From positions 4,633,001-4,697,000 of the forward strand of contig NZ_CP163443.1 of the NCBI RefSeq assembly GCF_041053055.1: a DNA stretch of 64,000 nucleotides, written 5' to 3'. Position 1 is the stretch's first letter, and each line of letters opens with the position of its first letter. This document shows, piece after piece, positions 61,578 to 63,525 of the stretch. This stretch comes from Streptomyces sp. R41 (lineage in GTDB: Bacteria; Actinomycetota; Actinomycetes; Streptomycetales; Streptomycetaceae). The notes under the pieces were generated by a model, which had not been told where the DNA came from, made no database searches, and was given only the letters and a program-made list of their open reading frames with translations. The position numbers were made by a program, and so were the translations under genes.

Positions 61578-62765
61578 TCACCACATCACCGGCAGCCGCT
61601 CGGGAATGCGCTTCATGAAACCCGTCCGCCACACCAATTGCTCGATGGGCACCGCCAGTTGGATCTCCGGCATGCGTTCGAGCAGCGTCTCCAGAGCGAT
61701 CTCGGCGTGCTTCTTGCCGAGGGCCGTGGCGGGGCAGTAGTGGCGGCCGCCGCCGAAGGAGAGGTGGGCGGTGTTGTTCTCCCGGGTGAGGTCGACCCGG
61801 TGCGGGTCGGGGAACTCCTCGGGGTCGAAGTTGGCACCCTCGACGAGGACCAGGACGAGCTCGCCCGCCTCGACCTCCACATCCCCCAGCCGTACGTCCT
61901 CCAGGGCGAGGCGCGGCAGTCCGTCGCCGATGGAGAGGTTGATGCGCAGGAGTTCGTCCACGGCGGCCGGAATCCGGTCCCGGTGGGCGAGCAACTCCGC
62001 GTGCAGCTCCGGGTGCTGGAGCAGCGAGACGATCGCCATCGTCAGAAAGCCCGACGTGGAGATCACGCCCGCGCCGAACATCGTCACCCCCACCGTCGCG
62101 AGCATCTCGTCGCTCAGGTGGGCGTACTCCGGGTCCTCGCGCAGGGCCGCCAGTTCGGACATGAGACCGGTCGTCGCCGGGTCGTCCAGGCGGGCGGTCA
62201 TGTACGAGATGTCGCGGTCCCAGTTCAGCTTCGCGCCCGTGATCGGGCAGGCCGAGTTCATGAACGCGATGTCCAGGCTGCGCATCAGCCGGGGCGCGTC
62301 CGCCTGCGGGATGCCGAGGATGTGACAGTGCATCGCCGCCGAGTACGGGTCGGCGAAGCCGCCGCGCAGTTCCGCGGGAGCGCCCTCGGCCAGCAGCCCG
62401 TCGACGAGCTCGGCGGCGTACGAGCGCATCCAGTCCGCCAGACCCTCGCTCTTCGGGTTGAGCGCCTTGAGGACGGCCTTGCGCAGCCCGGCCCCGGTGA
62501 TGTTGCCCATGTTGTTGACGACCTCGGGCGGGATTGTCAGGGCGTACTGGCGTGGCACGCCCGGTGCCGAGGTGTCCTTCAGGCTGAAACGGCTGTCCTC
62601 CAGGACCTGCTTGCACAGGTCGTACGAGGAGACCAGCCAGGCCTCGTCGCCGGCGATGGTCCGCACCCGCCGAACGGGGGTCGAGGAGCGCAACTCCTCG
62701 ACTTCGGTGGGCAGTTGGTCCCCGCGCCAGGAGAACGGGAAGTCGAGCAGGTTCTCAGCGAGCAT
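61578..62765 (-). CDS. Cytochrome P450, CYP121-like (cyclodipeptide C-C coupling)
   Basis: 395 residues from ATG 62765. Very similar throughout to M. tuberculosis CYP121, which couples the two tyrosine rings of cyclo(Tyr-Tyr) to form mycocyclosin. Shared stretches include TIPPEVVNNMGNI, TGAKLNWDRDISYM, FGAGVISTSGFL, LVEGANFDPEEFPDP and RIPERLP. Heme ligand Cys344 in FGGGRHYCP. The pocket residues I recall (Thr77, Val83, Asn85, Phe168, Trp182, Ala233, Ser237) are kept, but the Gln385-Arg386 pair is Met384-Lys385. It overlaps the synthase gene by 11 bases, so both are translated together. Confidence 0.93.
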   Translation of the reverse strand: MLAENLLDFPFSWRGDQLPTEVEELRSSTPVRRVRTIAGDEAWLVSSYDLCKQVLEDSRFSLKDTSAPGVPRQYALTIPPEVVNNMGNITGAGLRKAVLKALNPKSEGLADWMRSYAAELVDGLLAEGAPAELRGGFADPYSAAMHCHILGIPQADAPRLMRSLDIAFMNSACPITGAKLNWDRDISYMTARLDDPATTGLMSELAALREDPEYAHLSDEMLATVGVTMFGAGVISTSGFLTMAIVSLLQHPELHAELLAHRDRIPAAVDELLRINLSIGDGLPRLALEDVRLGDVEVEAGELVLVLVEGANFDPEEFPDPHRVDLTRENNTAHLSFGGGRHYCPATALGKKHAEIALETLLERMPEIQLAVPIEQLVWRTGFMKRIPERLPVMW

Positions 62766-63525
62766 CGCCGTCCCCTTCCTCCGACGTGACGACGGGTGTG
62801 ACGATCGCGTGGCCCTGGTTGCGGGACGCGCGCAGGCCCGAACCGCGCGCGTACAGCAGCTCGGCCATCGGCAGAAGCTGGTGGTAGCAGTTGAGGGAGG
62901 ACGGGACGCCCAGGATGGCGGGCGTGTCCAGGAACAGCGGCGCCTCCGCGCAGACGTACTTCAGACACACCTCGCGCTGACGTTCGGTGCCCTCCCGTCC
63001 GTCAAGGACCTTCGAGGAGAGGTACGCCTCCACGAGGGTGTCGCAGGTCTCGCGGAACTCCCCATCGGCGTCGAGGAGTTCGCGGATGTGGTGGTGGATC
63101 CGTCGGTACGCCGGGTTGTCCGTGAAGTCCGACATGGCGTGGGCGGTGAGTCTCCCGGCACCGGCACCGGTGCCGCCGAAGGCTTCCACCGCCGCGGTCA
63201 CCTTGGCGCGTACGCCCCGCAGATTCTTCACCGCCTTGCGCCGGGCGTCGTCGGCGGTATAGCCCAACGCCTCGTACATCTCGGCGACATGGAGGTCGGT
63301 ATAGACGAAGTCGATCCGGTCGAAGTGCTCGATGCCCCAGCGGGCGAGGTCATTGATCCGGCGGGCGGAGAAGTAGCTGTTCCCCGGCGAGACGCCGATC
63401 ACGGCATGGTCGCCCGCGGCGTGAATGACCTGACAGTGGGGTGTGTAGGGCTGAACTCTGAAGAGGCCGGAAATGATGGGCCCGGGAGTGACGTGCTGGA
63501 TCTCGGGAACTGTCGCAGTCGTCAA
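62755..63525 (-). CDS. tRNA-dependent cyclodipeptide synthase, Rv2275-like
   Basis: 256 residues. Uses two aminoacyl-tRNAs to make a cyclic dipeptide. The nucleophile Ser46 lies in GVSPGNSYFS, with Tyr190 and Glu194 in KYVCAEAP and Tyr214 in NCYHQ, matching Ser88, Tyr229, Glu233 and Tyr253 of the cyclo(Tyr-Tyr) synthase Rv2275; the 190-194-214 spacing is the same. Other matches are FDRIDFVYTDLHVAE, ARRKAVKNLRGVRAK and LFLDTPAILGVPSSLNCYHQ, and the LYARGSGLRASRNQGHAIVTP tail. The start is TTG 63525 with AAGGA about ten bases upstream. The likely product is cyclo(Tyr-Tyr), used by the P450. Confidence 0.94.
   Translation of the reverse strand: MTTATVPEIQHVTPGPIISGLFRVQPYTPHCQVIHAAGDHAVIGVSPGNSYFSARRINDLARWGIEHFDRIDFVYTDLHVAEMYEALGYTADDARRKAVKNLRGVRAKVTAAVEAFGGTGAGAGRLTAHAMSDFTDNPAYRRIHHHIRELLDADGEFRETCDTLVEAYLSSKVLDGREGTERQREVCLKYVCAEAPLFLDTPAILGVPSSLNCYHQLLPMAELLYARGSGLRASRNQGHAIVTPVVTSEEGDGDAR

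What the first reader, a model, noticed from the sequence alone, without database searches (positions are those of the whole stretch)
61578..63525. Streptomyces counterpart of the mycocyclosin pathway: Rv2275-like cyclodipeptide synthase overlapping a CYP121-like P450
The synthase keeps all catalytic residues of the cyclo(Tyr-Tyr) synthase of M. tuberculosis with matching spacing (Ser46, Tyr190, Glu194, Tyr214). The P450 is CYP121-like from end to end. The two reading frames overlap by 11 bases, as a coupled pathway would. CYP121 is essential in M. tuberculosis and is usually discussed as a mycobacterial enzyme, so a full pair in a soil actinomycete raises the question of what mycocyclosin-type molecules do outside pathogens.
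Basis: partly seen in the sequence, partly recalled or inferred. Interest (0 to 1): 0.88.

Follow-up and report, generated by a model that had tools for sequence, protein, structure and literature searches.

The report
Mycocyclosin genes with new RNA leader
The two genes are an ordinary Streptomyces copy of a known gene pair that makes cross-linked tyrosine cyclic dipeptides, but the stretch just before them forms a conserved folded RNA that we could not find in the RNA family library or in the papers searched, and that probably controls how the genes are translated.

Summary
In detail: an NYH-type cyclodipeptide synthase (62755-63525, minus) overlaps a CYP121-like P450 (61578-62765, minus) by 11 bases. 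The pair is no surprise. It belongs to the published 'gym' two-gene clusters (cyclo-Tyr-Tyr, then mycocyclosin and the nucleobase adducts guatyromycines). The closest solved structure is GymB1, ahead of CYP121, and the pocket is the GymB one; the mycobacterial pocket looks derived. The synthase is in 54 of 295 Streptomyces genomes sampled.

More interesting is what lies just outside the finding. The 5' leader of the synthase gene (63531-63594) is a structured RNA: two helices with repeated compensatory changes, a nearly invariant CACACC/GGGAC internal loop, and 3-8 nt to the start (mostly TTG) in 74 of 79 loci. In the 295-genome sample it precedes 75 of 75 full-length synthases of 42% identity or more (56 gym-type, 19 of a related group, Trp-type where checked) and 0 of 26 more distant ones. 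A weaker, related form precedes small LuxR-type regulators. Rfam 15 gave no match. It was not found at the two Nocardia loci and one mycobacterial-type locus searched. Translational control is my best reading; ligand or binding protein unknown.

The parts
62755..63525 (-). gymA-type cyclodipeptide synthase, NYH subfamily, P1 pocket VGVTMLFN, TTG start
   Evidence: pocket motif equals one of the published cYY motifs (PMC5816076, passages)
61578..62765 (-). gymB-type cytochrome P450 (CYP121 family), pocket as in GymB1, with M384/K385 where CYP121 has Q385/R386
63531..63594 (-). conserved structured 5' leader RNA (models R1/R2); 81.5 and 82.7 bits, only strong match in the genome
63581..63586 (-). 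leader helix P1, 5' strand (CGTCGC)
   Evidence: columns 9-14 of A3
63543..63548 (-). leader helix P1, 3' strand (GCGACG); ends 2 nt before the ribosome-binding sequence
   Evidence: columns 47-52 of A3
63569..63573 (-). leader hairpin P2, 5' strand (GGAGC)
   Evidence: columns 22-26 of A3
63559..63563 (-). leader hairpin P2, 3' strand (GCTCC)
   Evidence: columns 32-36 of A3
63536..63540 (-). likely Shine-Dalgarno AAGGA, 10 nt before the TTG start
   Evidence: read from the sequence; inference
63595..63624 (-). promoter-like TTGACA-18-TAACTT directly before the leader, so the mRNA would begin at about P1
   Evidence: read from the sequence; a looser pattern (TTGAC, 17-20, TANNNT) is in 35 of 80 upstream stretches; the tool's own promoter scan found nothing
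60092..61555 (+). DHA2-type MFS efflux pump, convergent neighbour; judged not part of the unit
   Evidence: no match beside the pair in the nearest relatives L003 and L004
59348..59971 (-). TetR regulator beside the MFS gene; judged not part of the unit

Best explanation
A two-gene gym operon. gymA joins two Tyr from Tyr-tRNA into cyclo(Tyr-Tyr); gymB oxidises it, by C-C coupling of the two rings to mycocyclosin and, as for its characterised orthologues, probably also by coupling to guanine or hypoxanthine (inferred by orthology). The mRNA probably starts with a structured leader of about 55 nt (P1 helix, conserved internal loop, P2 hairpin) whose P1 ends 2 nt before the ribosome-binding sequence. 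Shown by comparison: the leader is a folded RNA under selection, tied to this synthase family. Inferred: it controls translation of gymA, by binding a small molecule or a protein that changes P1 and so ribosome access. Because Tyr-type and Trp-type clusters share it, the signal should be common to both, not the dipeptide itself.
For: Gym membership: GymB1 best hit; 23 pocket positions identical in 121 of 142 rows, the window and GymB1 among them; cYY pocket and NCBIfam equivalog; P450 adjacent in 80 of 80 loci. RNA: 98.6% of cells paired and 32 cells changed on both sides, 0 of 500 shuffles as high on either, slid structures 30-52% paired; on 88 distinct rows 98.9% and 86 cells (an alignment fitted to the model); on a quick synthase tree of 86 rows the double-change states need 8, 8, 4, 3 and 2 changes at five pairs. 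One strong match in the own genome (81.5 v. 24.0 bits). Upstream of 75 of 75 full-length synthases at 42% identity or more in the 295-genome sample, 0 of 26 below. Spacing to the first in-frame start 3-8 nt in 74 of 79, TTG in 64 of 79. Lengths that differ by 1-2 nt argue against coding sequence.
Against: The window leader alone folds only modestly better than shuffles (z -1.95; 8 of 200 as good). Six of eleven pairs have no double change in A3, and two control measures are less striking (3 and 33 of 500 shuffles). No terminator was found and no SD-sequestering alternative fold was sought beyond the folds, so the control mode is not shown. Twelve RNA matches in the sample do not precede a CDPS gene. 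No expression or binding data. The LuxR-type leaders are weaker and three of the seven were in the model. Nucleobase coupling by this P450 rests on orthology alone.
Confidence: 0.75

Rival explanations
1. The leader is a DNA operator: a dyad bound by a repressor, not an RNA.
For: It abuts the promoter-like hexamers, and inverted repeats can show paired changes too.
Against: It lies downstream of the promoter-like site and keeps its distance to the start codon (74 of 79 at 3-8 nt); its most conserved parts include asymmetric loops; among cells that are not Watson-Crick pairs G-U outnumbers the rest 27 to 10 (summed), which an RNA explains and a DNA dyad does not.
Confidence: 0.1
2. The leader only protects the 5' end of the mRNA, or sets a constant translation rate, and senses nothing.
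For: It would form the very 5' end of the mRNA; 5' hairpins can do this (recalled, no call).
Against: A stabilising hairpin needs no conserved loops, yet C17-C20 and G40-G42 are the same in 32 of 32 rows of A3, across synthases down to about 42% identity.
Confidence: 0.25
3. One reading: a dedicated mycocyclosin pathway with the same single activity as the mycobacterial enzyme.
For: Both synthases have the P1 motif VGVTMLFN; 18 of 23 compared pocket positions, the Ser237 equivalent and the heme Cys among them, equal the M. tuberculosis enzyme.
Against: The other five (62, 78, 280, 385, 386) differ and all equal GymB1; GymB enzymes are reported as bifunctional (PMC10092475, passages).
Confidence: 0.15
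4. The neighbouring MFS/TetR genes are part of the pathway (export and control).
For: Adjacent and convergent.
Against: No match beside the pair in the nearest relatives (P450 96% and 87% identical); among the 80 loci only six have any MFS match at E 1e-20, best 41%, and none a TetR match (flanks at most 6 kb).
Confidence: 0.04

Closest known systems
gym two-gene clusters (GymA/GymB; mycocyclosin and guatyromycines)
   Same: CDPS followed by P450; GymB1 78.5% identical; same pocket; cYY-type P1 motif
   Different: A new member only; the leader RNA is not mentioned in the passages I could read (the primary paper, doi 10.1002/anie.202200377, is not held)
Rv2275/CYP121 of Mycobacterium tuberculosis
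   Same: Same two-step chemistry family; 62.9% (CDPS, partial sequence) and 62.7% (P450) identity
gut/ptm clusters (guanitrypmycins; PtmB, GutD)
   Same: CDPS plus related P450, nucleobase coupling (PMC13122648 and PMC7954767, passages); the related CDPS group at 42-52% identity has the leader RNA in 19 of 19
   Different: Trp-type CDPS pocket LGVALFF in 8 of the 9 of these 19 that were fetched, LEVALFF in the ninth; S229 and I385 in their P450s. One P450 of the group (L097) was compared with solved structures: 9o4d 645 bits, PtmB 575
Rfam 15 RNA families
   Same: A small 5' leader with helix, internal loop and hairpin, as in many cis-regulatory RNAs
   Different: No family reaches its gathering score in the window stretch or in the 14 other loci searched

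Membership tests
Cyclodipeptide synthase, NYH subfamily, cYY group | Catalytic S37, Y178, E182, Y202 and N40/Y202/H203 (AlbC numbering) | tested here: met
   SNYEYH
Cyclodipeptide synthase, NYH subfamily, cYY group | P1 motif VG[IV]TMLFN with the Tyr-selecting Asn | tested here: met
   VGVTMLFN; motif from PMC5816076 (passages); which AlbC positions make up P1 is partly from recall
gym two-gene cluster | CDPS directly followed by GymB-type P450 | tested here: met
gym two-gene cluster | Products mycocyclosin and guatyromycines | not testable with these tools
   needs expression and mass spectrometry
CYP121A (mycobacterial mycocyclosin synthase) | Branches with the mycobacterial enzymes | tested here: not met
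   window with S. albiflavescens (95/85); the four mycobacterial-type rows are one clade (100/100) in a group with Nocardia and Longimycelium (94/95)
CYP121A (mycobacterial mycocyclosin synthase) | Pocket residues M62, V78, F280, Q385, R386 | tested here: not met
   L, I, I, M, K in the window (that these define the subfamily is my inference; P0123 has L62 and A385)
Known Rfam family | Match at or above gathering score | tested here: not met
   none
Riboswitch | Conserved covarying aptamer-like fold in a 5' leader | tested here: met
Riboswitch | Direct ligand binding that changes expression | not testable with these tools
   needs probing and reporters
Riboswitch | Expression platform (terminator or SD switch) | tested here: inconclusive
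   no terminator; P1 ends 2 nt before the SD, no alternative pairing shown

The most novel reading that the evidence does not exclude
The leader is a new riboswitch class of actinomycetes that senses a small molecule common to Tyr- and Trp-type cyclodipeptide pathways (for example a purine, since both couple nucleobases) and switches translation of the synthase; a sister form controls small LuxR-type regulators. Lineages that lost it (Nocardia, mycobacteria, on the few loci searched) would express the pair without this control.
Probability: 0.3. Interest if true: 0.82.

Novelty: new variant of a known kind. Interest (0 to 1): 0.55.

Why it matters
A leader RNA that sits on 75 of 75 related synthase genes in the sample is a concrete, testable control point for these natural-product clusters. 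It also shows that two pathways with different amino acids share one control element. Separately, the mycobacterial drug-target pocket looks like a derived version of an older, GymB-like pocket, which names a small set of residues that may explain single versus double activity.

Tried and rejected
Considered and dropped: a Trp- or mixed-specificity synthase (P1 motif is the Tyr one); the MFS/TetR genes as cluster parts; a coding explanation for the leader (the frame is open back to 63600 but holds no ATG, GTG, TTG or CTG upstream of the TTG; element lengths vary by 1-2 nt); a known RNA family (the three hits are far below their cut-offs and on the other strand); a terminator. A look at reading frames beside three LuxR-type genes gave nothing. 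An AU test against the mycobacterial P450s lying outside all other gym-type rows gave p 0.03, but the grouping was named after the tree was seen, so it is weak; long branches in the outgroup make the rooting unsure.

Rows left out: A3 holds 32 of the 44 diverse leaders (I left out 12 with a bulge or insertion in or near P1, among them L079, which on later reading pairs well); A4 holds 92 matches from 97 sources that I chose, not from all loci held, and is fitted to the model; the tree uses 86 of the 92; the P450 tree has 54 rows picked by me with six pocket columns removed; the CDPS tree 40 rows. The 75 of 75 is not independent of the model: seven leaders in A3 come from these genomes (L093-L096, L098, L099, L108), and named loci in A3 may be the same species. 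Two partial CDPS matches were set apart: G162 (split in two, RNA present) and G274 (a 115-residue piece, no RNA). Of 88 RNA matches precede a full-length CDPS, one the split CDPS, 12 neither. Ten of the 12 were looked at: two before gut-type P450s with a CDPS remnant (L145, L146), one before a gut-type P450 in two pieces with no CDPS seen (L147), one before a scar with gymA 1-19 and gymB 377-395 (L149), one with a gymB fragment 1.6 kb on (L154), one with nothing found (L151), one before an unrelated protein (L152, weak), three before small LuxR-type genes (L148, L150, L153). Two (G198 at 71 bits, G201 at 30 bits) were not looked at.

Full report
OBSERVATION. The window ends with two minus-strand genes: a cyclodipeptide synthase (62755-63525, 256 aa, TTG start) and a P450 (61578-62765, 395 aa) overlapping by 11 bases. 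The synthase passes PF16715 and the NCBIfam equivalog 'cyclodityrosine synthase' (426.5 bits, cut-off 300). The genome has one CDPS match.

WHAT THE PAIR IS. Among solved structures the P450 is closest to GymB1 (8q6z, 688 bits), then 8q6x (604), CYP121 (558), 9o4d named 'Cytochrome P450 121' (551) and PtmB (515). Identity: GymB1 78.5%, 8q6x 70.7%, CYP121 62.7%. The synthase P1 pocket reads VGVTMLFN, one of the motifs reported for characterised cYY synthases of Streptomyces and Streptacidiphilus (PMC5816076, passages seen; the AlbC positions are partly from recall). A review states that six two-gene 'gym' clusters expressed in S. albus gave mycocyclosin and guatyromycines A and B (PMC10092475, passages seen). 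The primary paper (doi 10.1002/anie.202200377) is not held; I saw only its reference entry. So the pair is a new member of a known kind. It is common: 54 of 295 Streptomyces genomes have a full-length synthase match of 62% identity or more, own genome included; 21 of 394 genomes of the class have any CDPS match at E 1e-30.

RELATION TO MYCOBACTERIA. On a P450 tree of 54 rows the window pairs with S. albiflavescens; the four mycobacterial-type rows form one clade (100/100) in a group with Nocardia and Longimycelium (94/95), within the Streptomyces-rich gym radiation. The synthase tree agrees (Longimycelium, Nocardia and the mycobacterial rows together, 100/99). At 23 pocket positions 121 of 142 aligned rows are identical, the window, GymB1, 8q6x, Nocardia and Longimycelium among them. 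The five full-length mycobacterial-type rows (one of them a duplicate) all have V78, F280 and R386 where the 121 have I, I and K; four have M62 and Q385, while P0123 has L62 and A385. The Trp-type outgroup rows share L62, I78 and K386 with the gym rows, except L105, which has M62 and F78, and L096, which is cut at 62-86. So the mycobacterial pocket looks derived. Most of the 23 positions are listed as CYP121 ligand contacts in PMC11084333 (passages seen). The AU test against a basal place for the mycobacterial rows is only p 0.03, named after the tree was seen.

THE LEADER RNA. Aligning the upstream DNA of the window and its two nearest relatives showed near-identity from a TTGACA-18-TAACTT site to the start codon. 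In window plus 80 loci, a pattern for the element is met in 79 of 81; the two without it are both Nocardia, and the model agrees. The elements covary. On 32 diverse leaders, 11 pairs in two helices: 98.6% of cells pair, five pairs and 32 cells changed on both sides; shuffles as high: 0 of 500 for paired cells, for changed cells and for the covariation score, 3 of 500 for the number of pairs, 33 of 500 for further pair types; structures slid by 1-3 columns pair in 30-52% of cells. RNAalifold finds the same helices and adds an invariant CC/GG step. On 88 distinct rows fitted to the model: 98.9% paired, 86 cells, 0 of 500 on all five measures. On a quick synthase tree of 86 rows the double-change states need 8, 8, 4, 3 and 2 changes at five pairs, so they are not one inherited event. 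The window leader alone folds with z -1.95, which is modest.

DISTRIBUTION. With model R1 the own genome has one strong match (81.5 bits; next 24.0). In 150 Streptomyces genomes 38 have 48 matches at E 0.01. Joined with the CDPS table: 75 of 75 full-length synthases at 42% identity or more have the RNA before them (74 within 40 nt, one at 230), 56 gym-type and 19 at 42-52%; 0 of 26 more distant ones have it. This is not independent of the model, which was built in part from these loci. Nine of the 19 were fetched: eight have the Trp-type pocket LGVALFF, one LEVALFF. Twelve RNA matches precede no CDPS; at least four are relics of CDPS-P450 clusters, and all are told under Tried and rejected. 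Three precede small GerE/LuxR-type genes. In 11 loci with that gene found in 150 genomes (8 genomes), seven have a related RNA right before it, six at E 0.0052 or better and one at 0.16; three of the seven are the loci that were in model R2, so four are new. Class-wide, R2 matches 14 of 394 genomes in 2 of 137 genera. No match in the mycobacterial-type locus L102, in Nocardia L064 and L077, or in L105 and L106. Longimycelium, sister to the Nocardia-mycobacterial group on the synthase tree, has it, so loss on that branch is the simple reading.

HOW IT MAY WORK. The model end lies 3-8 nt before the first in-frame start in 74 of 79 loci, and that start is TTG in 64, GTG in 13 and ATG in 2. In the window P1 ends 2 nt before AAGGA. 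With the promoter-like site directly upstream, the mRNA would begin at about P1. This favours control of translation at a weak start codon; it is inference. The tool's promoter and terminator scan found nothing.

IS IT IN PRINT? Rfam 15 has no match (on window 63480-63720; on seven loci each). Paper searches for 'cyclodipeptide synthase' with 'riboswitch' (8 papers), structured RNA or leader terms with Streptomyces and untranslated-region terms (8 of 154 listed) showed no title or abstract start on it; I read listings only, plus passages of PMC11610984, whose riboswitch mention is about biosensors. Subscription papers are mostly not held, so this does not show that it is unpublished.

VERDICT. 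The finding as given is ordinary and explained. The leader RNA next to it is well supported as a structure, not yet as a switch.

Noticed in passing
window 59348-61555: A TetR/DHA2 efflux pair sits between the P450 and the DUF2637 gene (58419-59147) here; in S. albiflavescens (L003) the P450 and that gene are neighbours and neither efflux gene is matched: an insertion here or a loss there.
   Followed up: partly
L169-L174, L177 (unnamed Streptomyces genomes): Small LuxR/GerE-type regulators of about 116 aa preceded by a related form of the leader RNA, with GGGAA in the better matches where the CDPS form has GGGAC.
   Followed up: partly
L145, L146, L147, L149, L154, L166: Decayed or deleted CDPS-P450 clusters in which the leader RNA survives.
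   Followed up: partly
P450 positions 62, 78, 280, 385, 386 (CYP121 numbering): Gym-type and mycobacterial-type P450s differ at these pocket residues; P0123 (Mycobacterium ostraviense) is an exception at 62 and 385.
   Followed up: yes
L002 6704-7618 (window 63704 to beyond the end) and window 63642-63660: An RTX calcium-binding repeat protein lies upstream of the pair, and between them a GC-rich inverted repeat with 8-base arms; the terminator scan did not call it.
   Followed up: no
L080 and L082: The first in-frame start of the synthase lies 216 and 197 nt after the leader, which suggests a frameshift or sequencing error near the start.
   Followed up: no
G198:C1:5732916-5732978: A strong leader match (71 bits) with no CDPS match behind it.
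   Followed up: no
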